Of a stretch of 36,074 nucleotides of DNA, positions 21,946 through 36,074 are shown piece by piece. The notes beneath the pieces are model-generated. The model made no database searches. It had not been told where the DNA came from and was given only the letters and a program-made list of their open reading frames with translations. Position 1 is the stretch's first letter. Each line of letters begins with the position of its first letter. Location: positions 1-36,074 of the forward strand of contig JAPKMP010000030.1 in the NCBI GenBank assembly GCA_026645935.1, read 5' to 3'. This stretch comes from Candidatus Villigracilaceae bacterium (GTDB lineage: Bacteria > Chloroflexota > Anaerolineae > Anaerolineales > Villigracilaceae). Position numbers and translations under genes: made by a program.

Positions 21946-21997
21946 CCAGACAACTATCTGTTTTATCAAAGGTATAGGTCAATTGCGCCCTTGTGGT

Positions 21998-22003
21998 TAT
22001 AAT
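21998..22003 (+). promoter_or_regulatory. Possible -10 box upstream of the ATPase gene
   Basis: A perfect TATAAT lies 38 bases before the ATG at 22041. The -35 position holds only a weak match, so an activator or a relaxed promoter would be needed. If real, the ATPase and maltose-type importer form a separate transcription unit. Confidence 0.4.
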
Positions 22004-22040
22004 TAAATTACCATACTCGTTCAGAATTGGAGGTAATACC

Positions 22041-23141
22041 ATGGCAAGCGTAACATACAACAACGTAGTCAAGAATTTCGGGGATGTATCCGTCATCAAA
22101 AATATCGATTTCACGGTTGATGATAAGGAGTTTCTCGTGCTGGTCGGGCCTTCCGGCTGCGGCAAGACAACCGCCCTGCGCATGTTGGCAGGCTTGGAGG
22201 AGATCACCTCGGGTGAGATCAAGATCGGCGACCGGATCGTAAACGACGTGGCGCCCAAAGATCGCGATATTGCCATGGTGTTCCAATCCTATGCGCTCTA
22301 TCCGCACATGACCGTTTTCGACAATATGGCGTTCGGCTTGAAATTACGCAAGACGCCGAAAAGTGAGATCAACAGGCGTGTGAACGAGGCGGCGGAAATC
22401 CTCGACATCAAACATTTGCTTGACCGCAAACCGCGCCAGTTATCCGGCGGGCAACGCCAGAGAGTGGCTGTTGGACGCGCCATCGTGCGCGAACCGAAGG
22501 TCTTTCTTTTCGATGAGCCGCTTTCCAATCTCGATGCGAAATTGCGGGTTCAGATGCGTGCCGAGATCAGCAAGCTTCACCAGCGTTTGCAGACGACCTT
22601 CATCTACGTTACCCACGACCAGACCGAAGCCATGACCATGGCGAGCCGCATCGCGGTGATCAATAAAGGTCTGCTTCAGCAACTGGATACTCCGCAGGTG
22701 TTATACGACCGTCCCGCCAACCTCTTTGTCGCAGGTTTTATCGGTTCCCCGTCCATGAACTTCTTCCCCGGTAAGATCGATGTCGACGGAGGGAAGGTGA
22801 CGGTGGACATGGATTCCTTCAAGGTGCAGATCCCGGATGCGCTTGCCGCGCCATATAAAAACATGAACGGCAAGAAAATTGTTTTCGGCATCCGCCCGGA
22901 GAACATCCACGACCCCGAATTTGCCCCGCCCAACATTCACGGAGAAAAAGTAAGCGCCAAAGTGGATGTGACCGAGTTAATGGGAAATGAAACCTTCCTC
23001 TACCTGATCACAGGAGCGAACACATTCATTGCCCGTGTCGATCCCCGCTCGCAGAAGCGCGTGGGGCATGATGTCCAGGTCATCTTTGACATGGACAAGT
23101 TCCACATCTTCGATACCGAGACGGAAGAAGCCATTCGATAA
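22041..23141 (+). CDS. msmK: Sugar ABC transporter ATPase, MsmK/UgpC family
   Basis: This cytoplasmic subunit binds and hydrolyses ATP to power sugar ABC importers. From ATG 22041 (GGAGG 8 bases upstream) it has 366 residues, normal for the family. Walker A is GPSGCGKTT (residues 36-44), the Q-loop is [18 protein letters not shown], the signature is [15 protein letters not shown], Walker B is [12 protein letters not shown] and the switch is VTHDQTEAM. The last 130 residues are the regulatory TOBE-type domain. Members of this group often serve several importers. It is the only carbohydrate ATPase in the window, lies between two permease sets, and so probably serves both. The symbol msmK marks the subfamily, not a proven substrate; databases may use ugpC. 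Confidence 0.93.
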
Positions 23142-23238
23142 TCGCCTGTAAAGGAGGTGGTTGCCCGGCCAAAAAAAACGCAAACTGCACGACTCCAGTA
23201 AAACATAGCTTTCAATAAAATCCAAGGAGTAAAAGAGA

Positions 23239-24414
23239 ATGAAAAAGAAATTGCTTGCTTTGTTGAGCGTTTTGATGGTCGCTTCCCTCGCGCTTGCCGC
23301 ATGTGGCGGCGGCGGAGCTGCGACTACCCAGGGTGAAGTAACCTTCTGGCATGCCTATGGCACCGGTTCTGCTGAAGAAATCGCCCTAACCAATTTGTTG
23401 GAACAGGCGAAGACCGATCTCCCGAATATCACCATCAACGTACTTCAAGTGCCGTTTAACGACATCTTCACCAAATATGACACCGATGTTGCCGCCGGAG
23501 GCGGGCCGGATATGTTCATCGCCCCGAACGACAACCTTGGCGGTCAGGCTCGCGCCGGGACCATTGCTGACATCACCGCGCTGGTCGAAGGCAAACTTGG
23601 CGATTACAGCGAACTTTCCCAAGGTGGGATGATGTACGATGGCAAGATGTATGGCATCCCCGAGTCGATGAAGGCTGTGGTCTTTTGGTACAACAAGGAC
23701 ATGATCGCCACTCCGCCTGCCACCACCGACGATCTCAAAGCGTTGATGGAAGACGGCACCCCGATCGCCATTTCCTTCGGCTGCTACCACCACTGGGGCT
23801 TCTTCGGCTCCTTTGGCGGCCAGATCTTCGACGATCAGTTCAATTTTGTCGCTGCTGATGCCAATCAGACGAAGGTTGCCGATGCAATGTCCTATCTAAA
23901 TGACCTGTATCAGGTCTCCGTCGAGAACGGCTGGCCCCGCAATGACAGCGACGGTCTCGCTCCCTTTACCGAAGGCACCGTTGCCGCGATCACCAATGGC
24001 AACTGGGCAATGGGTGATTACCGCACCGCCCTTGGCGACAAGCTCGGCGTAGCCCCGATCCCTGCCGGTCCAGGCGGTGCCTCCAACCCGCTCCTCGGCG
24101 TTGATGGCTGGTACTTCAACCCGAACAGCCAGAACACCGAAGCTGCGATCGAAGTCGCTCTCTACCTGACCAATGCCGCCTCACAGACCATGATGATGGA
24201 CGAGGCCGGCCACGTGCCCGCCAATACCAAGGTCGAAGTGACCGATCCGCTCATCCAAGGTCTGCTCGACGCCTTCTCCACCGCCTACTTCCGCCCGCAG
24301 GTGGAAGCCATGGGCAACTACTGGGGCAACTTCTGCGGAACCGACCAGGTCTTTGATGCCGGAACCCCGGCTGCCGACTGGGTCGCCACCGCTTTCGAAG
24401 GCGCCACCAAGTAG
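23239..24414 (+). CDS. Sugar ABC transporter substrate-binding lipoprotein, maltose type
   Basis: The 391-residue product starts with the lipoprotein signal MKKKLLALLSVLMVASLALAAC (Cys 22), then a Gly-rich tether and VTFWHAYGTGSAEEIALTNLLEQ, typical of the MalE-like family 1 binding proteins. Other landmarks are GGGPDMFIAPNDN, YGIPESMKAVVFWYNKD and VDGWYFNPNS, with aromatic residues suited to stacking against sugar rings. AAGGAG at 23224-23229 supports the start. Two Cys (in SFGCYHHWGF and NFCGTDQ) might pair. It is followed by two permeases and two GH13 enzymes, which points to maltose or maltodextrins as substrate; that is inference. Codon use is strongly biased, suggesting high expression. 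Confidence 0.9.
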   Translation: MKKKLLALLSVLMVASLALAACGGGGAATTQGEVTFWHAYGTGSAEEIALTNLLEQAKTDLPNITINVLQVPFNDIFTKYDTDVAAGGGPDMFIAPNDNLGGQARAGTIADITALVEGKLGDYSELSQGGMMYDGKMYGIPESMKAVVFWYNKDMIATPPATTDDLKALMEDGTPIAISFGCYHHWGFFGSFGGQIFDDQFNFVAADANQTKVADAMSYLNDLYQVSVENGWPRNDSDGLAPFTEGTVAAITNGNWAMGDYRTALGDKLGVAPIPAGPGGASNPLLGVDGWYFNPNSQNTEAAIEVALYLTNAASQTMMMDEAGHVPANTKVEVTDPLIQGLLDAFSTAYFRPQVEAMGNYWGNFCGTDQVFDAGTPAADWVATAFEGATK

Positions 24415-24432
24415 TTCAAACTGCAACAAACA

Positions 24433-24471
24433 GGGAGGAGCGGACAAGTATCACTCTTGTCCGCTCCTCCC
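24433..24471 (+). promoter_or_regulatory. Intercistronic hairpin between maltose-type binding protein and permease genes
   Basis: A perfect 16-bp stem (GGGAGGAGCGGACAAG with its complement) and a 7-base loop, between the binding protein stop (24414) and the permease start (24509). There is no T-run after it, so transcript protection or processing fits better than intrinsic termination. It occupies the same place as the hairpin at 18004 in the first importer. Confidence 0.75.
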
Positions 24472-24508
24472 ACATTTGCAGAAGAAAACCCCAACCAAGG
24501 AGAGCAAG

Positions 24509-25522
24509 ATGGCGGCAGCACAATCATCCTTCTCAAAAACCAAAAGGCAAAACGCAGTCCTGCCGTATCTTTACCTTTTGCCTGCTTTTCTGATCATGGG
24601 GGTGATCACTTTTTACCCGCTCATTTACCAGGTCATCATTTCATTCACGAATTTTGAAACCCAGCATCTCCTGCTGGGCATGAGGTCACCCGACCTTAGA
24701 TTTATCGGAATCAAAAACTATATTGACATTTTCACAGCGGCGCTCCCCGTCGAGAATTTCAATTTCTTCCGCGTGCTTGAATTCAACTTCTGGTGGGCGC
24801 TGAGCAATGTCATTCTGCACGTTCCAGCCGGCGTAATGATCGCCACCCTGCTCAATACAGATGGATTGTGGCTGAAACGAATTTACCGCGCGGCGTACGT
24901 CCTCCCGGTCGTTGTGCCGCCCCTGGTCGTAGCCACGGTGTGGACGAACATCTTCGACGAACGCTACGGCGCAATGAACCAGTTGCTTACAACCCTTTCG
25001 GGCACGTTCCTGGGAAATTTCGACCCGATCTACATCCGCTGGTTCGAAGACGTCAAACCTCCCATCCCAGGCTTCCTGCCGGGCGCTCCGTTGACCCTTG
25101 CCTATTACGCAATGATGATCGCCAATTTCTGGCTCGGCTGGCCCTTCATGTCTGTCGTGGCAACCGGCGCATTGCAAAGCATCCCAAAAGACTTATACGA
25201 AGCAGCCTCCATCGACGGGGCTACCGGCGGACAGCAATTCTGGAACATTACCGTCCCGCTTCTTCGCCCCGCCATGATCCCGGCGGCGGTTTATGGATTT
25301 ACCTTGTCGTTCAATCTGTTCAATTTTGTCTTTTTCATGACCGGCGGCGGACCCGCTCGTTCGACGGAATTGCTTGTGACCTTCGCCTATAATCTCGTCC
25401 GCAACCTGCGCTGGTATGGCGTAGCGGCCGCGTTCGCCGTCATCATCTTCGCTGTGGCATTGGTCGTCTTCCTGATCACAAACCGCATCACCCGCGCTAC
25501 GCAGAATTACATGGAGGCATGA
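24509..25522 (+). CDS. Sugar ABC transporter permease (MalF type)
   Basis: From ATG 24509 (AAGGAG about 6 bases upstream) the product has 337 residues and about six to seven membrane helices, beginning LPYLYLLPAFLIMGVITFYPL. The EAA loop reads DLYEAASIDGATGGQQFWNITVPLL near residue 225. A frame opening further upstream at 24353 runs through the binding protein gene and the hairpin and is rejected. It ends 3 bases before, or overlaps, the next start, so coupling with the second permease is expected. It forms the channel of the second importer with the next gene product. Confidence 0.93.
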   Translation: MAAAQSSFSKTKRQNAVLPYLYLLPAFLIMGVITFYPLIYQVIISFTNFETQHLLLGMRSPDLRFIGIKNYIDIFTAALPVENFNFFRVLEFNFWWALSNVILHVPAGVMIATLLNTDGLWLKRIYRAAYVLPVVVPPLVVATVWTNIFDERYGAMNQLLTTLSGTFLGNFDPIYIRWFEDVKPPIPGFLPGAPLTLAYYAMMIANFWLGWPFMSVVATGALQSIPKDLYEAASIDGATGGQQFWNITVPLLRPAMIPAAVYGFTLSFNLFNFVFFMTGGGPARSTELLVTFAYNLVRNLRWYGVAAAFAVIIFAVALVVFLITNRITRATQNYMEA

Positions 25523-25524
25523 CG

Positions 25525-26529
25525 ATGACAACCTCAAGCGATACGAAGAATCCGATCATCCGATTCATGAACATGAACACCTCCGGGCAGACCGGTGGAC
25601 GCAGTCTCCCGCTTTGGAGGCAGCTCCTGCTCCAATTGACAGCGCTTGCCATTCTGGCGTCAGTGATGTTCCCGATCATGTATATCGTTACCTTATCGTT
25701 TAGCTCCAAGACCACCCGCCCCTCACAACTTGAACTCATTCCTAAGGAAATTTCCTTTGTCGCTTACGGCCAGGTGCTCGACCGCCCTACAGGCAATCCG
25801 GTCACATTTGCAGAATTGCTCAGGAACAGTTTCGTGCTCTCGCTCGGTGTCGGGCTCGCCGCGCTGGGCGTTGCGGTGACAGCCGCCTACGCCTTCTCCC
25901 GTTTCAAATTTAAAATGCGCGAAGTGCTGATGATCCTGGTATTCATTCCCCTTCTCATGCCAGCGGTCGGATTAAGCACACCATTGTATCTGCTTCTCAA
26001 CCAGGTACAGGTTAAGCAATGCGCCGAAGGCACCATCGCTGTTCAACCGATTACCACCTGCGCCGACGGCAAAGGCAGGCTGCAATTTAACCTGCGCGAC
26101 TCCCTTTTTGGCGTTGGCATTGCCATGACCGCCTCCGCCCTGCCTTTTGCAGTCTGGAATCTCAAAGGTTATCTCGACACCATTCCCCGCGAACTCGAAG
26201 AAGCCGCCGCGATCGACGGCGCAGACGCCAACCAGACCTTCTGGCGGATCGTCATACCGCTTGCCATGCCACAACTCGCTGTCACATTCTTCCTCGGCTT
26301 CATCGGGCACTGGCAGGAGTTTGTCCTCACCTGGCTGTTCCTCTCGCAGCCCAAAGACTACACCCTCGCCATGACTCTCTACAACATGACCGGCCAATAT
26401 GCCAATTCCGTCCCTTGGAACCGTTTTGCCGCAATGGCAGTTATCGTTGCGCTCCCAGTCGCCGTCGTTTACATTGCGCTCCAAAAGCAAATCGTCGGCG
26501 GCCTCACCACTGGCAGCGTCAAAGGCTGA
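25525..26529 (+). CDS. Sugar ABC transporter permease (MalG type) with a Cys-containing insertion
   Basis: With the ATG at 25525 the product has 334 residues; GGAGG at 25513-25517 is spaced 7 bases from it, whereas the ATG at 25519 is too close. Six helices, the EAA loop ELEEAAAIDGADANQTFWRI and the C-terminus QIVGGLTTGSVKG are typical of MalG. Unusual is an insertion of about 30 residues after TPLYLLLNQ, with Cys 166 and Cys 179 and many polar residues, where most MalG proteins run straight into the next helix (often N-T-x-x-G-L). This loop should face outward and might dock the binding protein; that is inference. Confidence 0.92.
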   Translation: MTTSSDTKNPIIRFMNMNTSGQTGGRSLPLWRQLLLQLTALAILASVMFPIMYIVTLSFSSKTTRPSQLELIPKEISFVAYGQVLDRPTGNPVTFAELLRNSFVLSLGVGLAALGVAVTAAYAFSRFKFKMREVLMILVFIPLLMPAVGLSTPLYLLLNQVQVKQCAEGTIAVQPITTCADGKGRLQFNLRDSLFGVGIAMTASALPFAVWNLKGYLDTIPRELEEAAAIDGADANQTFWRIVIPLAMPQLAVTFFLGFIGHWQEFVLTWLFLSQPKDYTLAMTLYNMTGQYANSVPWNRFAAMAVIVALPVAVVYIALQKQIVGGLTTGSVKG

Positions 26530-26554
26530 CCCCAACCTCGATTCCCGCCCCATA

Positions 26555-26596
26555 TTCCTCTTTCTTCTTTCAAAAGGAAGAAGGAGGAAATTTTTT
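26555..26596 (+). terminator. Hairpin plus T-run that also contains the amylase ribosome site
   Basis: A 16-bp stem (left arm 26555-26570, right arm 26574-26589; two G-U wobbles) with loop CAA, then A and six T. The right arm includes AAGGAGG at 26581-26587, the only good Shine-Dalgarno sequence for the amylase. The element can therefore act as a terminator after the permease gene, as a block to amylase translation, or both. Confidence 0.7.
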
Positions 26597-28199
26597 GCCC
26601 CTGACCGACATGCCCTTCCGGACATCTTTCACGCTGTTGCTTTTATCTTTTCTTTCGGCTTGCGCTTCTTTCTCCCTCGAAGCTGATTCGACAACCAAAA
26701 CCGCGTCATCGCCAGAAATTAATCCCGCAGGCTGGTGGCGGACTGCCGTGTTCTATGAAATCTTCGTCCGCTCCTTCTATGACACGGATAAAGACGGCAT
26801 CGGAGATCTCAACGGAATCACCGCCAAACTCGATTATCTTAATTCTCTCGGCATAGATGCCATCTGGCTCATGCCGATCCATCCCTCCCCCTCCTATCAC
26901 GGCTACGATGTGACCGATTATTACGCCATCAACCCCGAATACGGCACAATGGACGATTTCAAGAATCTCCTGAACGAGGCGCACAGGCGGGACATCCGCA
27001 TCATCATCGATTTTGTCATCAATCATACATCGAGCAGACATCCTTGGTTCATGGATGCGAACACCAACCCGAAATCGGCATATCGCGATTACTACATCTG
27101 GGCAGACGAACCCGGTCCAGGCAACTGGCACCAGGGACAGAACGGATATTACTACGGCTATTTTTGGGAAGGCATGCCCGACCTGAATTACTCCAATCAC
27201 GCAGTGACTGAGGAAATGTTAAAGGTCACTGATTACTGGCTGAACGAAATCAGCGTGGATGGTTTCCGCGTGGACGCGGTCAAGCACCTTATCGAAGAAA
27301 ACGGCAAGGTGGAAAACGCCCCCGCCACCCACCTCTGGCTCGAGGACTTCCATTTCGCCTATAAGGCGCAGAACCCGCAGGCTTATACTGTTGGCGAGGT
27401 GTTCGGCGCTGGGGCATCGGTGGTCGCGCTATATACCGGAGACGAACTCGACCATATCTTCAACTTCGAAATGGCGAGCGGATTCGTAAACAGCGCCAAC
27501 GGCGAAGCAAGTTCCGGTATTGCCAGCGCGTATAAATTTGCTTTTATGGACATGCCCGATTTCAACTTCGCCACTTTCCTCGCCAACCATGATCAGAACC
27601 GGGTCATGTCAGTCTTCAATGGCAATGCGAACAAGGCAAAAGTTGCATCGTTCCTCATGCTGACAGCGCCTGGTACGCCATACATCTATTACGGTGAAGA
27701 GATTGGAATGCAAGGCGTCAAACCGGATGAAGACATTCGCCTGCCGATGCAGTGGAGCGGCGATAAGTTTGCAGGTTTCTCTTCTGTTCAACCCTGGCGA
27801 AACCTCTCGAGCGACTACACGCAAGTCAATGTCAAAGCGCAGGAAGACGATCCCGCATCCTTGCTCAATCATTACCGAACCCTCATCCAACTGCGCAAGG
27901 AACACCCCGCACTGCTAACCGGCAATGCCACGCTGATTGAAACAGAGAATCCGGTTGTTTTTGCTCTGCTACGCGAAAGCGGCTTGGAAAATATTTTGAT
28001 TGTCGTCAATCTGGGAAAAACACACGTTACAGACTATCGGTTAGACCTATCCGCGACAGCCATTACTCTAGATGGAAACAACCCGGCAGTTTTGTTCGGA
28101 GGGTCAGACGCCATAGCGGTGAACACGCTGGATGGATATAAACCGCTGGCAGAACTCCCTCCCTACCAAATGCTGATACTAAAGGTCGGCGGGAGATAA
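26595..28199 (+). CDS. Surface lipoprotein alpha-amylase (GH13)
   Basis: A GH13 glycosidase that should cut alpha-1,4 glucans outside the cell. A TTG start at 26595 is spaced 7 bases from AAGGAGG and gives 534 residues; an ATG at 26610 gives 529. Either leaves a lipoprotein signal, MPFRTSFTLLLLSFLSAC (lipobox LSAC). The barrel begins TAVFYEIFVRSFYDTDKDG. GH13 regions are DFVINHTS, GFRVDAVKH with nucleophile Asp 227, VGEVFG with acid Glu 268, and FLANHDQNR with Asp 333 (numbered from TTG). The beta-rich C-terminal domain is present. Lipid anchoring next to a maltose-type importer suggests it feeds that importer. It may equally be annotated as an oligo-glucosidase; exact product size is unknown. 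Confidence 0.9.
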   Translation: MPLTDMPFRTSFTLLLLSFLSACASFSLEADSTTKTASSPEINPAGWWRTAVFYEIFVRSFYDTDKDGIGDLNGITAKLDYLNSLGIDAIWLMPIHPSPSYHGYDVTDYYAINPEYGTMDDFKNLLNEAHRRDIRIIIDFVINHTSSRHPWFMDANTNPKSAYRDYYIWADEPGPGNWHQGQNGYYYGYFWEGMPDLNYSNHAVTEEMLKVTDYWLNEISVDGFRVDAVKHLIEENGKVENAPATHLWLEDFHFAYKAQNPQAYTVGEVFGAGASVVALYTGDELDHIFNFEMASGFVNSANGEASSGIASAYKFAFMDMPDFNFATFLANHDQNRVMSVFNGNANKAKVASFLMLTAPGTPYIYYGEEIGMQGVKPDEDIRLPMQWSGDKFAGFSSVQPWRNLSSDYTQVNVKAQEDDPASLLNHYRTLIQLRKEHPALLTGNATLIETENPVVFALLRESGLENILIVVNLGKTHVTDYRLDLSATAITLDGNNPAVLFGGSDAIAVNTLDGYKPLAELPPYQMLILKVGGR

Positions 28200-28466
28200 T
28201 CATTTTCCAAGATACAGCACGCCGATGACATAGATCAGTGCCGCCATGATGCCGATGGACGAGATGCCGATCCCAATCACCGCGGTCTTTGTATTCTCCG
28301 TCCTTAGGCTGAGAGCGCCAAGCACAACCCCTACAAGCCCTGAAATAATGCCGCAGGCAGGGATGACACCCAGGCAGAGGCTGATTACCCCAAGCGCGGT
28401 GGAAGCGATGGCGTATAATCTTGCGAAGCGCAACTCAGGGTCCAGGCTGTCAGGATCAACGTCCAT
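28200..28466 (-). CDS. Small DUF4190-like membrane protein
   Basis: From the ATG at 28466 the product is 88 residues: a short acidic N-terminus (MDVDPDSLDPELRFARLYAI) and two hydrophobic segments separated by a short polar turn (LRTENTK). The pattern of two helices with many Gly and Ala (GVISLCLGVIPACGIISGLVG) resembles DUF4190 proteins. GGAGGG is spaced 7 bases from this ATG, so an in-frame TTG at 28487 is less likely. It is on the opposite strand between two GH13 genes, and its stop touches the amylase stop (28199/28200). Function unknown. Confidence 0.72.
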   Translation of the reverse strand: MDVDPDSLDPELRFARLYAIASTALGVISLCLGVIPACGIISGLVGVVLGALSLRTENTKTAVIGIGISSIGIMAALIYVIGVLYLGK

Positions 28467-28563
28467 GGTACTACCCTCCGGAATCAAGCGCCTAATGCGT
28501 GATGCGCTCCCATTATTTTACACGCGAATTATTCCACAAAATCCAATTCCAACGAGGCAATAA

Positions 28564-30027
28564 ATGACCACACCAGACTGGGTAAAAGACGCGATTTTCT
28601 ATCAAATCTTCCCCGACCGTTTTTCAAAAAGCAATAAACTTCCAGATATTGGCTTCGAGTCATGGGATAGCATGCCGACACATCACGGCTTCAAAGGCGG
28701 CGACCTCTACGGCGTGATCGATAAACTGGATTACCTGCAGGACCTGGGAATCAACGCTATATATTTCAACCCCATTTTTGCTTCGGCTTCAAATCACCGT
28801 TATCACACATACGACTATTACCACGTGGATCCGCTTCTCGGCGGCAATGACGCATTGAAGGAATTAATCGATGCGGCGCACAAGCGCGGTATTCGCGTGG
28901 TTCTAGACGGGGTCTTCAACCACGCCTCGCGCGGATTCTGGCAATTCCACCATGTATTGGAGACGGGCGCGGCCTCTCCATACAGGGATTGGTTCCATTT
29001 CGACGAGGAGCGCCTGAACGGACAAAAACACTGGGGCGCGTATCCTTCGCTCCACGAGCAGAAACTGCTCCACCATGATGACAGCATGACTGCCATCGGC
29101 TACCGCGCCTGGTGGAATCTGCCTGCCCTACCCAAATTCAATACCATTACACCCGCCGTGCGGGAATTCATTTTCGACGTGGCAGAGTATTGGGTCAAAT
29201 TCGGAATTGACGGCTGGCGGCTTGACGTACCTGCCGAGATCGACGACGATGAGTTCTGGCGCGAATTCCGACGGCGCGTTCGGGCTGTCAATCCGGAGGC
29301 GTATATCGTTGGCGAGATCTGGCATGAGGCGCAGAGATGGCTGCAGGGCGATCAGTTCGACGCGGTGATGAACTATCTCTTCACAGCCGCAGCGCTTAAC
29401 TTTTTCGCCGGTTCGCACTTGAACTTCGAGGCAATCAACCATGCGGGCGGATTGAAAGACCGCGTTCATCGCATGCACGCAAAAGCGTTCGCCGACGAAG
29501 TCGAGCGGATCCTGCACCTGTATCGCGAAGATATCACCTTTGCCCAACTCAATTTGCTGGACAGCCACGATATGCCGCGCTTCCTGACCTGTGCAAGCGG
29601 AGACAAGGCATCTCTCAAACTGGCTTGGCTTTTCCTATTCACGATGCCGGGCGCTCCCTGCATCTACTATGGAGACGAAGTCGGCGTGGATGGCGGCCAC
29701 GACCCGGATTGCCGTAAAGGTTTTCCCTGGGACCAGGCGAAATGGGATGTGGATCTGCTCAATTTTGTGAAAGCTTGCATCACTTTGCGTAAGGAACAGG
29801 ACGCCCTCCGACATGGGGATTACAATCGGATCCATACCGAGGATGACATCATGGTTTTCTGTCGGACACTTGGACAGGAAACGATCACCATCGCCTTTAA
29901 CGCATCGAATACTGCGAAATCCTTCGATTACAAACAAAACGATTCGCCTCAAGTCCTGTTTGGAACGCCAGGCGTAACGGGCCGGACCATTACTGTCCCG
30001 CCAAGAAGCGGGATCGTGGTCAAATAG
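28564..30027 (+). CDS. Cytoplasmic GH13 glycosidase, neopullulanase/cyclomaltodextrinase-like
   Basis: No signal peptide is seen, so it should act in the cytoplasm on imported maltodextrins. The 487 residues start directly at the barrel (PDWVKDAIFYQIFPDRF) and include GGDLYGVIDKLDYLQDLGI, DGVFNHASRGFW, GWRLDVPAEI with nucleophile Asp 221, VGEIWHEA with acid Glu 251, and LLDSHDMPR with Asp 336. The PDRF, GF-GGDL and WRLDVP patterns are those of GH13 subfamily 20. Typical members carry an extra N-terminal domain of about 120 residues used for dimerisation, which is absent here, so product range may differ. A terminator-like structure lies after the stop. Probable role: release of glucose and maltose inside the cell. 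Confidence 0.9.
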   Translation: MTTPDWVKDAIFYQIFPDRFSKSNKLPDIGFESWDSMPTHHGFKGGDLYGVIDKLDYLQDLGINAIYFNPIFASASNHRYHTYDYYHVDPLLGGNDALKELIDAAHKRGIRVVLDGVFNHASRGFWQFHHVLETGAASPYRDWFHFDEERLNGQKHWGAYPSLHEQKLLHHDDSMTAIGYRAWWNLPALPKFNTITPAVREFIFDVAEYWVKFGIDGWRLDVPAEIDDDEFWREFRRRVRAVNPEAYIVGEIWHEAQRWLQGDQFDAVMNYLFTAAALNFFAGSHLNFEAINHAGGLKDRVHRMHAKAFADEVERILHLYREDITFAQLNLLDSHDMPRFLTCASGDKASLKLAWLFLFTMPGAPCIYYGDEVGVDGGHDPDCRKGFPWDQAKWDVDLLNFVKACITLRKEQDALRHGDYNRIHTEDDIMVFCRTLGQETITIAFNASNTAKSFDYKQNDSPQVLFGTPGVTGRTITVPPRSGIVVK

Positions 30028-30045
30028 CTGTAGTTGTTGAGAATT

Positions 30046-30097
30046 TTTCGCCGTGGCGAAAGGTTGGATTTTTTGACCTTGACGTCACGGCGGTTTT
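30046..30097 (+). terminator. Possible terminator with two alternative stems after the GH13 gene
   Basis: TTTCGCC and GGCGAAA (30046-30061) can pair tightly. Alternatively CGCCGTG (30049-30055) pairs with CACGGCG (30086-30092) around an inner AAGGT/ACCTT stem, followed by GGTTTTATT. The two folds exclude each other. The T-run is short, so termination strength is doubtful. The gene-free stretch 30028-30262 (235 bases) otherwise shows only a weak GATAAT at 30213. Confidence 0.4.
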
Positions 30098-30262
30098 ATT
30101 GAATTCACCTTTCGAGGATTGGCTGCGAGGGACATCGTCCAACTTCTCTTGGATCATTGAAAACATGACATTTTCTGGCAGTGTTTTCGGACTTTTTGTG
30201 CAATAATTGGACGATAATTCTCGCTGCCCAAGCGGATCCCCAGGAAAAAGGAGATGGATCGA

Positions 30263-33200
30263 ATGGCTGATGCCACCGCGCAGGAAATCCGATATGCGAG
30301 AGGCGCATATAACTGGTTGAGGGTATCGCCTCTGTTGACCATACCCACCCTGTATATTGCCGCCTCCATATTTTTCCAATTGGATATTTGCTCGAACTTC
30401 GGTCTCGTATGCAGCTACAGCGTTGACGAGGCGATCAGCTATGGCGGCGGGGTGATCGTATCCGCGCTCTGGCATCTTCTTCTGCTTCAATATGTGAATC
30501 ACAAGAATAGCGAATTTGTCCGCGAACACGGGCGCATCGCCCTGACCCATGCGGGAATTCGCACCGGGGCTGCCCTTGTGACCGCGGGCATGAGCATATT
30601 TCTTTTTGGAGCATCCTGTGTCTTATTGATCGGAATCGTCATCCTGATCATTTTATGGGCGAACAGTGTCGGCATGAGAAGTCGCTACTTGAAGGAGTAT
30701 CCGGAGTTTCCCAGTTTGGGATCCGATGATGTTTCCGGCTTGACGTCCATTCAAAACGCTGGAACAGGGGAGTCGAGCGATGAATATGACAATACGGGCA
30801 TCCGCATGGATGCGAGAGAGGCAATCAATCGCCCACGGCAGTCTGGCAAATTTGCATCCGGCCCGGCCAATACAGCGGTAGGCGATATGAACGACCCGAA
30901 ACAAGTTCTTGATAATCTTCTTGTCAGGTTGAGAAGCGGGAAAGACAGTGAGATCGTCGAAGCGCTTGAAGCATTAAGCCGTTTGGGTTATAGCAGTGAG
31001 GCGGTTCGCCATCAACTTGAACAACTTGCCATAGCAGGCGGAAATGAAGAAATGCGCAGTCGCGCCATTGCCGCATTGGATTCCGCCGCCAACCGCGCCG
31101 TTCAAAAACGGTTCAATTCCAACAAGCTGGACCGCGGCATACGCTACACCTTGCTTCAGGAGATCAACGAGTGGGTGAAATACAACCTGGTCGAAAAACG
31201 CGTGGCGGATGTCCTGCGCCACCGCTACGATTTCGACTTCGCGCCTCAGCCCGCGCCGGTACCCGCTCCAACTCAAATTGCCGCTTCTACGCCGCAGGCG
31301 GTTCAGCCCAATCCCGCCCCGGCCGTGATTCCCGCCTCGACGCCCTCGCAACCGTCTGCGCCGCCAGAGCCGCGCCCCAGCCTTCTGCAAACACTAACCA
31401 GCGAAGCCAGCATCAAAATATATCTTTACCTTGGCGCGTTCTTCGTCATCGCCGCCGCAGCGATTCTTGGCGCCGTCGTCCCCGAACTGCGACTCCCCAT
31501 TCTCATCATCGGCACATTCATATTCGGCGCATTGGCAGTCCTCATCAAAAAACGTCTTCCCCAGCCAAGTTTTGCGCTTTTCATTGTCTTCTCTTTCCTC
31601 CTGCCCATTACTGCGAACAGTTTGCACGAATCTCTGAGACAATCCTTCGATATTCCCGCCTCATTCACGGACGGATACTGGGCGGTTGTCTTCTTCATCA
31701 TGGCTGCCATTTGGAGTGGAAGCACCCGTTTGTACGAATCGCGTTTCTTCTCCGTCGCCGCATTCGGCGCGTTGATTCTTTCCTTCTTCAACGTTGGCTC
31801 GGCGTTCGATGCAAAACCAGACGTTTACACATTGTTGATGGGATTCGCCGCTCTTGCGGGGCTGATCGGGACCTGGCTGCTCAAATCGAGGAAGGGCGGT
31901 AATTTTGCTCTTCCGGTTTTCATCATGGCGCAGATTCTGCAAATCGCCAACCTGATCGTTTCTCTCAGCGCCTTCGGCATCAGCACATTCGATCCATCCT
32001 ATGAAAATCTTTTCCATTTGGTAACGTTCCTAACATGGCTGCTGGCGATGATTTTTTACCTAATCTCGGAAAAATTATTTCCCTTCTTCGCCTTCCCATG
32101 GCTTTCTGCCGCCACACTCGTCCCCATGCCATGGTTCATTGCAGCTGCCTTCGACGTTGAAAGCCTCGGTTCGACCATTCTCTTATTCGCCTGGGGTGCA
32201 ATCTTTGCCGTTACGAGCGAAGCATTGTTCCGGCTTGAAAAGGCAAAAAAATACAGCCTGCCCATGATGCTTTCGACTTTGCCGAGCCTCGGGCTGGCGG
32301 TCTTCACCGGACTCGTTTATGAAATCTGGCTCTGCCTCGTTGTCGCGGTTGGCGCTGCTTTCCTGTTCACCATTCTTCACATTTTACGAACGCGCTGGTG
32401 GTTGTGGACTCTGGCCTTACTCTATGCCGTCATTGCATATTTCGCCTTCCTCCAACTCGACTTTATAAAACGCTTCGACATACCGTTCGGTTACAGCCTG
32501 GTAGGACTTACGATCCTGTTCCTGCTCCCAGATCTGTGGATGAAAAAGGATTGGAAGGAAAATCCTGCGTGGCGTTTGCCCCCTCGCTTGTACGGCGCTG
32601 CATTCCTATTAACCGCAAGCCTAGTCCTCCTATTCGAAGGCAGGCTTGGCCACGTTGCGATCGGTTATCTACTCCTTGCGGTTTTCTGTGCGGTTTACGC
32701 GCTCGTCTACCGCAAACCTTATCTCGCCTACATTCCCGCTGCACTTCTCCCGCTCGCGATCTTATTCGCTCTTGACGCGTTCGAGCTTGATGCCTGGGTC
32801 CTTTCGCTTTCCGCGCTCGCGCTTCTATATTTTGCCGTTGGGATCGTCATCCGTAGAAACGAAAAATGGTCCACCGCGCTTCGTTCCAGCGGAATGGTGC
32901 TTGGCGTGACCGTTTCCCTCGCCGCCCTTATCTTTGCGAAGGAATCCAGCGGCTGGTACGCCCTGTTAATAGGAGCGCTCTTCGTTGCGGAAATGCATGT
33001 GAGGAAAAATGGTTTGTTCGAGCTCGGTGCGCCCCTTCTATTCACCTCGGGAGCGTTGCTTATCCTCCAGGATTACCAAATCGACCGGGGTTATTATCAC
33101 CTGCTGACTTATTCCTTGATTTGGGTTTTCGCCGACCTCGCCAACCATCTCACTTTCGATCAGCCCAGGCCTCTTAAATTGGTCGTCCGGGGAATCGGTG

Positions 33201-34723
33201 GTTTAATCGCGGCGCTGAATTTCATTTTGCTTCTTATGACACCCTCCAGGGATGCTGCGCTCTCTTTTGGAATTTACACACTTTCTTTTGCCATCTGCGC
33301 CTTTGTTTACCGGCGAGCCTGGCTGGGATACATTCCCGCAGCTACACTCCCATTGACAGTTTTTTTCGCACTCGATCATTTCAACATGGATGCCTGGCTC
33401 CCAGCTCTGACGGGTCTTACCGTCTTTTATTTCGTCATGGGGTTGGTCTTCCGTTCAAAAGCCAATCCCGCCATCATATTCCGCAACAGCGCGCTGATTC
33501 TTGGTTCCATCGTTTCCATTGGCGCATTCGTCATACTCAAAGAGACCGGCGGATGGTATATGCTCGCAACCGGCCTGCTTTTCATTGCGGAAATGCTTAT
33601 GAGAAAGAACGGTTTGTTGGAACCCGGCGCGCCCGTTCTGTTCACGATGGGAATTTTTCAAATATTCAACGACTTGAATATCGAGCGGATCACCTTTCAT
33701 CTTCTGGCATACAGCTTCATCTGGCTTTTAACCGACGTGCTCGCCCATCTTGCTTTTCCGCATCCGCGCCCGCTCAAGTGGCTGGTCCGCATCGCGGGTG
33801 GACTCGCCGCTCTTGTCAATTATGGATATCTCTTCTCTGAGACAGATGCTCTCATCGCGGCGATCAGCTTCGCCGTCTATTCGCTTCTTTTCCTGACCGT
33901 GAGCTTGGTCTATCGCCAACCAAATTTGCTCTACACTTTTACTTTGACCCTTCCACTCTTTGCCACATTCCTATTCCGCGCCTTTGAAATGACAAGATGG
34001 ATACATCCTGTGGTCATTATTGCGGCGCTGTATTACGGCATGGCGTATTTTCTCCGCCGCCGCGACCGCCCTGGGAAATGGGCGCCGCCTTTGTTATATT
34101 CCGGACTCAGTTTGGGGGTCTTTGTCTCAATTGCCGCCGTCAAGATCGGCGGATTGGATGCGTCGATCCCGGTTGCGGTTTCCGCAACACTCTGGACGGT
34201 AGAAGCGTTTGCAAAAAGAAATGTCTGGCTGGCATTCCCGGCAAACGCACTTTACCTGCTCTCTTACTTCATCATCCTCTTCGATTTGGATGTCGGCGAG
34301 CCGCAATTCTTCTCTGTCGGCACGGCACTTTTCGGTTTGATCCAGCATTATCTGTTGACCAGGTCCGGGAGTAGGACTGGCGCATTTATCATGGGAATGT
34401 TCTCGCAGTTTGTCCTGCTCGGAACAACTTATATCGAAATGATCAACAGGAACGATCTGGGTTATTTCTTCCTCCTCTTTGTGCAGTCTCTGGTGGTGCT
34501 GGTATACGGAATCGTCATCCGCTCGCGAAGCCTCACCTTTTTTCCCATCGGCTTCGTGGCGGTTGGCGTGGTCACGGTGGTATATAGCGCATTGAAGGAC
34601 CGGGCGGCGATCTTCGTCATCGGTTGTACGGGCATCGTCCTGCTGACACTCGGCGTGGTCGCCGTTCTTCTGCGGGAACGGATCGCCAAACTTGGAGAAA
34701 AATTCAGCGATTGGAGAGCTTAA
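30263..34723 (+). CDS. Giant polytopic membrane protein with three internal repeats (DUF2157/DUF2339-like)
   Basis: From ATG 30263 (AAGGAG spaced 9 bases; the ATG at 30254 is too close) the product has 1486 residues. Layout: an N-terminal module with about three helices like DUF4870 (residues 15-140), a polar linker, a short HEAT-like helical stretch (about 218-290, IVEALEALSRLGYSSEAV), a Pro/Ala-rich linker (326-376), then about 35-40 membrane helices to the end. Within these helices three related units of about 200 residues begin near 811, 1011 and 1212. Each has [AV]xVYR-x-x-L-x-Y, then TLPL or LLPL, a F-x-[LM]-x-x-W turn, and WY-L-x-G-LF-[IV]AE-x-x-x-[KR]-KNG in the first two. Similar giant proteins are called predicted membrane proteins; function unknown, possibly envelope-related. 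A VOC gene follows at 3 bases. Confidence 0.82.
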   Translation: MADATAQEIRYARGAYNWLRVSPLLTIPTLYIAASIFFQLDICSNFGLVCSYSVDEAISYGGGVIVSALWHLLLLQYVNHKNSEFVREHGRIALTHAGIRTGAALVTAGMSIFLFGASCVLLIGIVILIILWANSVGMRSRYLKEYPEFPSLGSDDVSGLTSIQNAGTGESSDEYDNTGIRMDAREAINRPRQSGKFASGPANTAVGDMNDPKQVLDNLLVRLRSGKDSEIVEALEALSRLGYSSEAVRHQLEQLAIAGGNEEMRSRAIAALDSAANRAVQKRFNSNKLDRGIRYTLLQEINEWVKYNLVEKRVADVLRHRYDFDFAPQPAPVPAPTQIAASTPQAVQPNPAPAVIPASTPSQPSAPPEPRPSLLQTLTSEASIKIYLYLGAFFVIAAAAILGAVVPELRLPILIIGTFIFGALAVLIKKRLPQPSFALFIVFSFLLPITANSLHESLRQSFDIPASFTDGYWAVVFFIMAAIWSGSTRLYESRFFSVAAFGALILSFFNVGSAFDAKPDVYTLLMGFAALAGLIGTWLLKSRKGGNFALPVFIMAQILQIANLIVSLSAFGISTFDPSYENLFHLVTFLTWLLAMIFYLISEKLFPFFAFPWLSAATLVPMPWFIAAAFDVESLGSTILLFAWGAIFAVTSEALFRLEKAKKYSLPMMLSTLPSLGLAVFTGLVYEIWLCLVVAVGAAFLFTILHILRTRWWLWTLALLYAVIAYFAFLQLDFIKRFDIPFGYSLVGLTILFLLPDLWMKKDWKENPAWRLPPRLYGAAFLLTASLVLLFEGRLGHVAIGYLLLAVFCAVYALVYRKPYLAYIPAALLPLAILFALDAFELDAWVLSLSALALLYFAVGIVIRRNEKWSTALRSSGMVLGVTVSLAALIFAKESSGWYALLIGALFVAEMHVRKNGLFELGAPLLFTSGALLILQDYQIDRGYYHLLTYSLIWVFADLANHLTFDQPRPLKLVVRGIGGLIAALNFILLLMTPSRDAALSFGIYTLSFAICAFVYRRAWLGYIPAATLPLTVFFALDHFNMDAWLPALTGLTVFYFVMGLVFRSKANPAIIFRNSALILGSIVSIGAFVILKETGGWYMLATGLLFIAEMLMRKNGLLEPGAPVLFTMGIFQIFNDLNIERITFHLLAYSFIWLLTDVLAHLAFPHPRPLKWLVRIAGGLAALVNYGYLFSETDALIAAISFAVYSLLFLTVSLVYRQPNLLYTFTLTLPLFATFLFRAFEMTRWIHPVVIIAALYYGMAYFLRRRDRPGKWAPPLLYSGLSLGVFVSIAAVKIGGLDASIPVAVSATLWTVEAFAKRNVWLAFPANALYLLSYFIILFDLDVGEPQFFSVGTALFGLIQHYLLTRSGSRTGAFIMGMFSQFVLLGTTYIEMINRNDLGYFFLLFVQSLVVLVYGIVIRSRSLTFFPIGFVAVGVVTVVYSALKDRAAIFVIGCTGIVLLTLGVVAVLLRERIAKLGEKFSDWRA

Positions 34724-34726
34724 GAT

Positions 34727-35128
34727 ATGTCTGATACAAAACCACCCATCTTCGAATTGCGTGTGGCCGTTACCACCCCGGATTACGAAAGGCTTGTCAA
34801 GTTTTATTGTCTGGGATTGGGGATCGAGCCAGCTGCCGTCTGGAACAATGACGGCGGCAGGGCGTTGATGCTCGAAATGGGAAAAGCCACGCTGGAGATC
34901 TTCGACGAACGACAGGCGGAAGTCATCGATGGATTGGAAGCCGGGAAGCGTGTCAGCGGGCAGGTGCGGTTTGCATTACAGGTCCCCGACCTGAAAGCGG
35001 CAATGGGGCGAATGTTAGCCAATGGTGCGACTTTGGTGCATGAACCCGTTTTGACGCCCTGGGGCGATCTCAACGTCCGCCTGCAAGACCCGGATGGAAT
35101 GCAGATCACACTGTTTCAGGCAAAATAA
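34727..35128 (+). CDS. VOC-fold (glyoxalase/bleomycin resistance-like) protein
   Basis: The 133-residue product is a two-module beta-alpha-beta fold: FELRVAVTTPDYERLVKFYCLGLG at the front and FALQVPDLKAAMGRMLANGATLVHEP in the second half, ending LQDPDGMQITLFQ, the standard VOC ending where the metal-binding Glu or Gln lies. The superfamily includes glyoxalases, dioxygenases and antibiotic-binding proteins, so the reaction cannot be stated. It starts 3 bases after the giant membrane protein gene, so it is probably co-transcribed. The gene downstream is convergent with a 5-base gap. Confidence 0.88.
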   Translation: MSDTKPPIFELRVAVTTPDYERLVKFYCLGLGIEPAAVWNNDGGRALMLEMGKATLEIFDERQAEVIDGLEAGKRVSGQVRFALQVPDLKAAMGRMLANGATLVHEPVLTPWGDLNVRLQDPDGMQITLFQAK

Positions 35129-35133
35129 GACGG

Positions 35134-35871
35134 CTAAATTCGCCATACTGCCTTGACCAACTCGGGCAAAATGGAGCCGGACTTGCCATGAAAGGAAAAA
35201 TCCACTTTGGGCGTGAGCGGGGTCGGTTCGGCGTTGATTTCGACGACGACAGAACCTTTATTGCGTGCGGCATGAGCAAGGGAGGCGGCTGGCTGGACCA
35301 CACCCGATGTTCCGATGGAAAAGAACAGCTGGCAGGACCGCGCAGCTTCGACAGCGGACTCAAGTTCTGCCCTCGGCAGGGATTCGCCAAACCAGACAAC
35401 GTCAGGTCTCAGTAACCCGCCGCAAATCAAGCACTGAGGTACTTGTTCAGTGTATTCATCCCACATCTCGGCGAACTTCCCGCAATTCGAGCAGCGCACC
35501 TTTTGTATATTCCCATGCAATTCAAGCACGTTCTGGCTTCCGGCAAAACGGTGAAGACCGTCCACGTTCTGTGTGATCAGGGTGAATTCCGGAATCCGGT
35601 GTTCCATTTCGACAAGAGCATAATGACCGGCATTTGGCCGCACACCTTTGATCGCCTCCCGGCGCCAGGCATACCAATCCCATACGAGTTTGGGATCGCT
35701 GGCAAAGGCTTCAGGGGAGGCTAAATCTTCGGGTTTGTACTGAGCCCAAAGTCCGGTTTGAGCGTCGCGAAAGGTGCGGAGACCGCTCTCTTGCGAAACA
35801 CCCGCTCCAGTAAGGACAGCGACACGCGTAGCGGAGGTTAAAAAGCGAATAAAGTCTGTTGGGAAGTCCAT
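35134..35871 (-). CDS. cobB: NAD-dependent protein deacylase, sirtuin (CobB/Sir2 family)
   Basis: Sirtuins remove acyl groups from lysines using NAD+, giving nicotinamide and O-acyl-ADP-ribose. From ATG 35871 there are 245 residues, the usual bacterial size. Seen are VLTGAGVSQESGL and RTFRD (NAD pocket), TQNVDGLH (catalytic region), LELHGN with the active His, a zinc site of two CxxC pairs (CSNC and CLIC), PDVVWFGE and a C-terminal NAD loop (GTSGVVQPA). The start shares its A with the stop of the upstream gene (TAATG), so translation is coupled. An upstream extension in frame lies inside that gene. Target proteins are unknown; acetyl-CoA synthetase is a common one. Confidence 0.94.
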   Translation of the reverse strand: MDFPTDFIRFLTSATRVAVLTGAGVSQESGLRTFRDAQTGLWAQYKPEDLASPEAFASDPKLVWDWYAWRREAIKGVRPNAGHYALVEMEHRIPEFTLITQNVDGLHRFAGSQNVLELHGNIQKVRCSNCGKFAEMWDEYTEQVPQCLICGGLLRPDVVWFGESLPRAELESAVEAARSCQLFFSIGTSGVVQPAASLAHAARNKGSVVVEINAEPTPLTPKVDFSFHGKSGSILPELVKAVWRI

Positions 35872-36074
35872 TATGGAGCGGTGGTATTTGTGGCAGTGAT
35901 GGATGCAGGGTCGCATTCCAGCATCTTCAGCCTTTCCTTGAAAATGTCGGTACGCCCATTCTCACTGCCCGATTTGGTCGTCGATACGATCTGATACTCG
36001 ATCCATGAAGAGTCAAAATAGGCGTCGTCTTTTATCTGATCGGAGGATAGGTCGTGGATAAATGTCCCCGCCCC
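35871..36074 (-). CDS. Unidentified protein, C-terminal 67 residues (5' part outside the window)
   Basis: An open frame enters from the right edge and ends in TAA at 35871-35873, sharing one base with the sirtuin ATG (TAATG). The visible part has a hydrophilic, mixed-charge sequence, including DDAYFDSSWIEYQIVSTT, GRTDIFKERLKML and a Thr/Ala-rich tail ATNTTAP. I recognise no family; the direct coupling to the sirtuin makes a real gene likely. Only the end is seen, so function cannot be inferred. Confidence 0.7.
   Translation of the reverse strand, partial: GAGTFIHDLSSDQIKDDAYFDSSWIEYQIVSTTKSGSENGRTDIFKERLKMLECDPASITATNTTAP

What the first reader, a model, noticed from the sequence alone, without database searches (positions are those of the whole stretch)
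30263..34723. 1486-residue membrane protein with three tandem units of about 200 residues
Units starting near residues 811, 1011 and 1212 share VYR-x-x-L-x-Y, TLPL/LLPL and WY-L-x-G-LF-x-AE-type motifs, showing internal duplication in a huge helix bundle. A cytoplasmic HEAT-like stretch and a DUF4870-like front are fused to it. Function is unknown.
Basis: seen in the sequence. Interest (0 to 1): 0.6.

Follow-up and report, generated by a model that had tools for sequence, protein, structure and literature searches.

The report
Giant membrane protein with repeated modules
This is a very large bacterial membrane protein whose central block of about eight membrane-crossing helices occurs in different numbers in related species, so it shows how a membrane protein can be lengthened module by module, although what it does in the cell is still not known.

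Summary
The 1486-residue protein has related units at residues 810-1005, 1011-1206 and 1212-1398, far above shuffled controls, plus a diverged fourth at 615-803. Each unit carries about eight helix-like peaks; the core has 42, with a clear positive-inside pattern. Among 56 proteins (this one and 55 homologues) first and last units are fixed caps, while the middle holds 0, 1, 2 or 3 units (once 2.5), with at least 16 changes on a tree. In front lie a HEAT-like domain and an optional, weakly DUF4870-like piece. No Pfam family matches it. It is a homologous, sub-threshold relative of SCO7613_CTERM (NF047321), whose mechanism is unknown. Of 90 genomes with an NF047321-type match in this bacterial family, 72 have this type and 18 a giant form, each just one. 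It often follows a maltodextrin gene cluster, but not in two orthologues outside the family. Best guess: a length-adjustable membrane platform acting on lipids or envelope stress, as Arc3A does; weakly supported.

The parts
30263..34723 (+). whole frame, 1486 aa (an ATG at 30254 would give 1489 aa)
30284..30664 (+). optional front with 4 helix-like peaks, DUF4870-like (weak)
   Evidence: present in 24 of 59 proteins; DUF4870 in 8 of 20 aligned fronts, best 0.002; peaks
30875..31267 (+). HEAT-like helical domain, inferred cytosolic, ending in a conserved helix with E...W and RYDFD
   Evidence: A3 alignment; HEAT_2 in 25 of 34; side inferred from the charge pattern of the core
31268..31378 (+). 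proline/alanine-rich linker
   Evidence: read in the translation and in A3
31397..32104 (+). entry segment of the membrane core, 8 helix-like peaks (398-594)
32105..32671 (+). first (diverged cap) unit, residues 615-803
32690..33277 (+). middle unit 1, residues 810-1005
33293..33880 (+). middle unit 2, residues 1011-1206
   Evidence: low-confidence model with eight helices of 16 residues or more after the end of the one before
33896..34456 (+). last (cap) unit, residues 1212-1398
34172..34657 (+). stretch matching SCO7613_CTERM (NF047321) below its cut-off
   Evidence: 24.4 bits for the protein, cut-off 45; 30.5 bits at this place in the genome search
34457..34720 (+). conserved tail, 2 helix-like peaks, invariant RSRS and a conserved RER...W end
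   Evidence: alignment A1
28564..30027 (+). GH13 gene of the maltodextrin glucosidase kind, directly upstream
   Evidence: PF00128 5.9e-77; GH13 at this place in 39 of 59 loci
30042..30065 (+). terminator-like hairpin between the GH13 gene and this gene
   Evidence: 1 found, 0.5 expected by chance: weak
21993..28199 (+). ABC importer of the maltose type (ATPase, binding protein, two permeases) and a second GH13
35134..35916 (-). SIR2 family deacylase, convergent; within eight genes in 35 of 59 loci
   Evidence: PF02146 5.1e-54

Best explanation
SHOWN BY SEQUENCE: a giant membrane protein made of a HEAT-like domain, an entry segment, a fixed first unit, a variable number of middle units of about eight helices and a fixed last unit with a conserved tail; middle units are gained or lost whole (once by a half unit), which keeps the topology because 8 (or 4) is even. 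It is a derived branch of the SCO7613_CTERM superfamily. INFERRED: it sits in the cytoplasmic membrane with both ends inside; the middle units form a row of helix hairpins, a membrane counterpart of a solenoid, whose length can change without loss of function, while the caps and the tail hold the specific contacts. The most likely job, by analogy only, is that of Arc3A (DUF2339, 35 helices): a membrane platform that sequesters or moves amphipathic lipids or otherwise steadies the envelope, with the HEAT-like domain recruiting a cytosolic partner.
For: Self-alignment far above shuffles. Unit profile gives 2 to 5 units in homologues of 853-1787 aa. Middle length divided by 200: 0.03 in 5 proteins, 1.03-1.10 in 28, 2.04-2.08 in 15, 3.02-3.29 in 7, and 2.52 in one. 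First, middle and last labels need only 2 changes on a tree of 189 units, so position is ancient; 10 of 77 middle units have their nearest neighbour in the same protein, and one pair is 587 of 639 bases identical. Loops after odd core helices: 17 K/R and 36 D/E; after even ones: 51 and 10. Homology to the NF047321 giants: membrane parts E 1e-24, reversed control 0.33. Of 152 genomes, 90 have an NF047321 match, each just one: 18 giants and 72 of this type. Arc3A: 35 predicted helices; its loss raises lysophospholipids under phospholipase attack, and its authors suggest its helices may sequester them (PMC8926400, section 8 part 1 and passages).
Against: Homology to DUF2339/Arc3A was tested and not shown. 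The best hit (giants, E 8.1e-9) covered the proline-rich linker; a second (four-unit type, 3.4e-4, at the start of the core) was not recovered once the parts before the membrane were cut away and the alignments remade: 0.01, 0.017 and 0.0025 in three comparisons, reversed controls 0.031, 0.27 and 0.23. None of the ten window neighbours searched is a lipid-handling gene by name. Structure models are poor (pLDDT 59 and 44), and the one structure search gave no match at E <= 0.001, so the row-of-hairpins shape is unproven. Helix counts rest on a crude hydropathy scan that strays by up to 4 from the unit rule.
Confidence: 0.5

Rival explanations
1. An accessory membrane component of the maltodextrin importer and glucosidase cluster beside which it lies, for instance helping uptake or handling of alpha-glucans.
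For: GH13 gene directly upstream on the same strand in 39 of 59 loci; within eight genes, ABC permeases in 27, ABC ATPases in 23 and binding proteins in 15 loci. Two of the three giants in the family set (L085, L087) and one from another genus (L120) also follow a GH13 gene.
Against: In two orthologues outside the family no GH13 is in view; the five two-unit proteins lack it in view; a terminator-like hairpin lies between (weak); SIR2 on the other side is nearly as conserved (35 of 59), so this may be plain synteny.
Confidence: 0.2
2. A force sensor or channel built like PIEZO, whose subunit has nine 4-helix repeats and a pore (38 helices).
For: 4-helix half units in a row: half-unit profiles match at E 1.9e-6 (reversed 0.39), and one homologue has a 100-residue array. 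PIEZO layout read in passages of PMC7796548.
Against: No sequence match in the PDB at E <= 1 with the C-terminal or unit profile; no pore module identified; structure models too poor to compare.
Confidence: 0.07
3. A sugar-lipid or polysaccharide membrane enzyme (GT-C or polymerase type; a recalled resemblance).
For: Many helices, acidic external loops, conserved polar residues E, H, Q in the last unit, GH13 neighbours.
Against: No enzyme family matches the whole protein in Pfam or NCBIfam; C-terminal pieces gave only scattered weak hits besides NF047321; the acidic loops recur in every unit rather than in one active site.
Confidence: 0.1
4. Apparent repeat number differences come from assembly errors or chance likeness of membrane sequence.
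For: Most genomes are draft assemblies; two loci had broken frames (L064, L088).
Against: Units are mostly strongly diverged, so they should not collapse; single-contig genomes G005 and G112 carry 3 units and the four-contig G389 carries 4; shuffles and most reversed controls are far lower.
Confidence: 0.02

Closest known systems
SCO7613 C-terminal domain-containing membrane proteins (NCBIfam NF047321)
   Same: Homologous C-terminal domain (39 of 41 homologues match at E <= 0.01, best 6.7e-11) and homologous membrane core in the giants of the same bacterial family (E 1e-24).
   Different: Below the curated cut-off (24.4 against 45 bits); middle units amplified, some of them lately; HEAT-like front, where 11 of 18 giants start with a zinc-ribbon-like MxCPxC (read by eye).
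Arc3A / DUF2339 (PF10101)
   Same: Very many membrane helices whose number varies between relatives; a soluble front and proline-rich linker in the DUF2339 proteins compared.
   Different: Membrane-part homology not shown; no DUF2339 above cut-off in 61 genomes of this family. An Arc3B-like neighbour was not looked for.
DUF2157 (PF09925)
   Same: Weak likeness: 4 of 34 HEAT-like domain pieces (best 0.0029) and one of two giants scanned (6.4e-4).
   Different: No match over its cut-off was seen; P0001 itself has none.
PIEZO 4-helix repeats
   Same: Rows of 4-helix units in a very large membrane protein.
   Different: No sequence relation found in the PDB searches; no pore seen.

Membership tests
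SCO7613_CTERM (NF047321) | score over the curated cut-off of 45 bits | tested here: not met
   24.4 bits, 30.5 bits; one orthologue, G329, just reaches 45.2
SCO7613_CTERM (NF047321) | homologous C-terminal domain | tested here: met
   39 of 41 homologues, best 6.7e-11; giants over the cut-off align to this type at E 8.1e-58, and with membrane parts realigned alone at 1e-24
DUF2339 / Arc3A | match to PF10101 | tested here: not met
   no match for P0001 at E <= 1; own genome none; 1 of 41 C-terminal pieces at 0.0068; membrane-part profile comparison inconclusive
DUF2339 / Arc3A | protects against phospholipase toxin, keeps lysophospholipids low | not testable with these tools
   needs a bench test
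DUF2157 | match to PF09925 over cut-off | tested here: not met
   P0001 none; 4 of 34 homologous pieces, best 0.0029
HEAT repeat | match to a HEAT Pfam model | tested here: inconclusive
   window's own 0.055; 25 of 34 homologues match HEAT_2, best 2.7e-7
DUF4870 | match to PF09685 | tested here: inconclusive
   window's own none; 8 of 20 fronts, best 0.002
PIEZO | sequence relation to solved PIEZO chains | tested here: inconclusive
   no PDB sequence match at E <= 1 with two profiles; a remote relation would be missed
PIEZO | C-terminal pore module | not tested
   models too poor

The most novel reading that the evidence does not exclude
A membrane protein family that is lengthened and shortened by whole 8-helix (or half, 4-helix) topology-neutral modules between fixed end caps, as soluble solenoid proteins are, from 26 to about 53 helices among orthologues; the number of modules tunes how much membrane or lipid one molecule spans or binds.
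Probability: 0.3. Interest if true: 0.75.

Novelty: new variant of a known kind. Interest (0 to 1): 0.55.

Why it matters
Internal duplication in membrane proteins is usually ancient and fixed (recalled, general knowledge); here the copy number still changes between related species while both ends stay fixed, which gives a natural series (0, 1, 2, 2.5, 3 middle units) to test how repeat number affects folding, shape and function of a membrane protein. It also ties an orphan protein to the unexplained SCO7613-type superfamily and shows that genomes with a match keep just one of two forms, hinting at a shared task.

Tried and rejected
Pfam, NCBIfam and PDB sequence searches of the protein, of the C-terminal part and of the units gave no function. 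A scan of viral contigs confirmed no relative; the genome-contig scan found one fragment, 92% identical, on a contig filed under a Phycisphaerales MAG, probably a mis-binned contig (my inference). An alignment with overlapping pieces (A4) was not used. Membership in DUF2339 looked possible (E 8.1e-9) until the parts before the membrane, linker included, were cut away. A quarter-unit (50-residue) repeat was not supported: of six quarter pairs only 1-3 and 2-4 match clearly. The half-unit repeat is shown by half profiles and by L084, but a self comparison of middle units gives 0.001 against 0.0015 for the reversed control, and of first units nothing (0.092 against 0.0049 reversed), so by that test it is not shown. 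First against last units alone is weak (0.0077). Paper searches for SCO7613, DUF2339, DUF2157 and for variable membrane repeats listed no description of this repeat-number variation; only that open library was searched, and the listings were read, not the papers, save those named. The SCO7613 deletion paper (PMC8313934, passages) reports less PHA and no growth loss; its lipase-box reading of the gene is not taken over here. A passage on DUF2157 in LiaF (PMC11237479) was seen and not used.
Full report
OBSERVATION. The frame at 30263-34723 encodes 1486 residues. The units near 807-1007 and 1007-1208 align end to end, 96 of 199 columns identical, with score 485; 200 shuffles that keep the class of residue at each position reach at most 151. 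The third unit scores 155 and 110 against the first two (maxima of those shuffles 77 and 66). A profile from the first two units alone finds the third (i-Evalue 4.8e-15) but not residues 615-803. A family-wide profile, trained on a set that includes this protein, gives four units: 615-803, 810-1005, 1011-1206 and 1212-1398. First units as a set match middle units as a set at E 2.4e-14, reversed control 0.47; first against last only 0.0077, reversed 0.28.

UNIT ANATOMY. The mean hydropathy of 189 units shows seven clear maxima in the unit, with an eighth helix across the joint. The scan of P0001 puts about 8 peaks into each unit, 8 into the entry segment, 2 into the tail and 4 into the front, 46 in all. 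A low-confidence model of the second middle unit (pLDDT 59) has eight helices after the end of the preceding one. Loops after odd core helices hold 17 K/R and 36 D/E, loops after even ones 51 and 10 (none of 20,000 random deals reaches the K/R difference). This is the positive-inside pattern for a protein with both ends in the cytosol. The two halves of the unit are related: E 1.9e-6 against 0.39 reversed (1.2e-4 with another column setting); a self comparison of middle units alone does not separate from its reversed control (0.001 and 0.0015). L084 carries five half-unit matches 100 residues apart.

COPY NUMBER. Matches to P0001 at E <= 0.001 occur in 86 of 152 genomes of its bacterial family (8 of these are genomes with a giant, see below) and in 15 of 301 sampled across the phylum, four of them outside the family and weak (3.3e-7 to 8.9e-4). 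With the C-terminal profile 14 of 298 across the class match: 7 of the family, 2 strong outside it and 5 weak. Of 60 loci fetched, 58 gave unbroken proteins. Leaving out three giants, 56 proteins including P0001 have a middle span of 0.03 (5 proteins), 1.03-1.10 (28), 2.04-2.08 (15), 3.02-3.29 (7) or 2.52 (1) units of 200 residues. On a tree of the other parts at least 16 changes are needed among 55 rows (quick tree, long branches L084 and L077 flagged). Helix-like peaks follow roughly: without the front 26 with two units, 30-35 with three, 38-42 with four, 49-51 with five; with the front 37-39 with three, 45-47 with four and 53 with five. On a tree of 189 units the labels first, middle, last change only twice; 67 of 77 middle units have their nearest relative in another protein, 10 in the same one. 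In L066 two neighbours share 193 of 213 residues and 587 of 639 bases. So the ends are ancient and fixed, and the middle has changed length repeatedly, some of it lately. The tree counts cannot tell gain from loss.

FRONT. The HEAT-like part matches HEAT_2 in 25 of 34 homologues (best 2.7e-7) and DUF2157 in 4 (best 0.0029). Its profile also ranks designed HEAT-like (alphaRep) chains first in the PDB, best 9.1e-8 for a synthetic fusion and 8.5e-7 for a named alphaRep, though for most no single stretch passes alone. The 4-helix DUF4870-like front is present in 24 of 59.

RELATIVES. The C-terminal part is a sub-threshold match to NF047321: 39 of 41 homologues, best 6.7e-11. Of 152 genomes of the family, 90 have an NF047321 match, each exactly one: 18 giants over the cut-off (17 with frames of 1898-2653 aa, one of 1185) and 72 of the present type (one, G329, just over the cut-off). 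NF047321 misses some proteins of the present type, so the check from the other side matters: the P0001 search finds 8 of the 18 giant genomes, at 3.9e-50 or weaker, and in the three whose rows are listed (G080, G390, G402) the match is the front of the giant itself. Two random sets of 18 and 72 among 152 would be disjoint with chance 3.5e-6, ignoring relatedness. Giants and the present type align at E 8.1e-58; membrane parts realigned alone 1e-24, reversed 0.33. Of six giants of the window's genus, three (L085-L087) have the same DUF4870-like and HEAT-like front as P0001, and two of these follow a GH13 gene as P0001 does; the membrane part may have been exchanged at one place. The other three start with a zinc-ribbon-like motif. 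By my reading, 15 of 18 giant loci have a PrsW-family protease gene downstream, 13 of them directly (PF13367 1.8e-13 for the one tested).

NEIGHBOURS. A GH13 gene stands directly upstream on the same strand in 39 of 59 loci, and SIR2 within eight genes downstream on the other strand in 35 (two loci had no upstream gene in view). Outside the family two orthologues of 866 and 905 aa have neither in view. A terminator-like hairpin follows the GH13 gene in the window (1 found, 0.5 expected). So the link is kept within the family but need not be functional.

FUNCTION. No call shows a function. Arc3A of Pseudomonas aeruginosa, a DUF2339 protein with 35 predicted helices, keeps lysophospholipids from piling up under phospholipase attack; its authors suggest that the helices may sequester lysophospholipids (PMC8926400, section 8 part 1 and passages). 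Homology to it was tested here and is not shown once the parts before the membrane are removed. I keep it as the likeliest analogue, with low confidence. Deleting SCO7613 in Streptomyces coelicolor lowers PHA content without harming growth (PMC8313934, passages), which says little about mechanism. My weights: anatomy and evolution 0.95; row-of-hairpins shape 0.5; lipid or envelope work 0.25.

HOST.

Noticed in passing
L085, L086, L087, L119, L121-L127, L129-L132: NF047321 giants (54-67 helix-like peaks in the five counted) are followed in 15 of 18 loci by a PrsW-family protease gene, two further ones outside the family (L110, L111) too, often with a ~180-200 aa gene beyond; a conserved pair of unknown role.
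   Followed up: partly
L120-L128, L130, L131: Giants mostly begin with a zinc-ribbon-like MxCPxC front (11 of 18 by eye), while three of the six in the window's genus have the DUF4870-like and HEAT-like front instead.
   Followed up: partly
L084: One homologue has a middle span of 2.52 units, an odd number (five) of 100-residue half units, a 4-helix step.
   Followed up: partly
L002 7335-7865: A 92% identical fragment sits on a contig filed under a Phycisphaerales MAG, probably a binning error.
   Followed up: no
window 28246-28563: A 105 aa open frame between the two GH13 genes matches no Pfam or NCBIfam family at E <= 0.01; it may be no gene.
   Followed up: no
window 34727-35128: A glyoxalase-family gene starts 3 bases after the stop; it is found there in 4 of 59 loci only.
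   Followed up: yes
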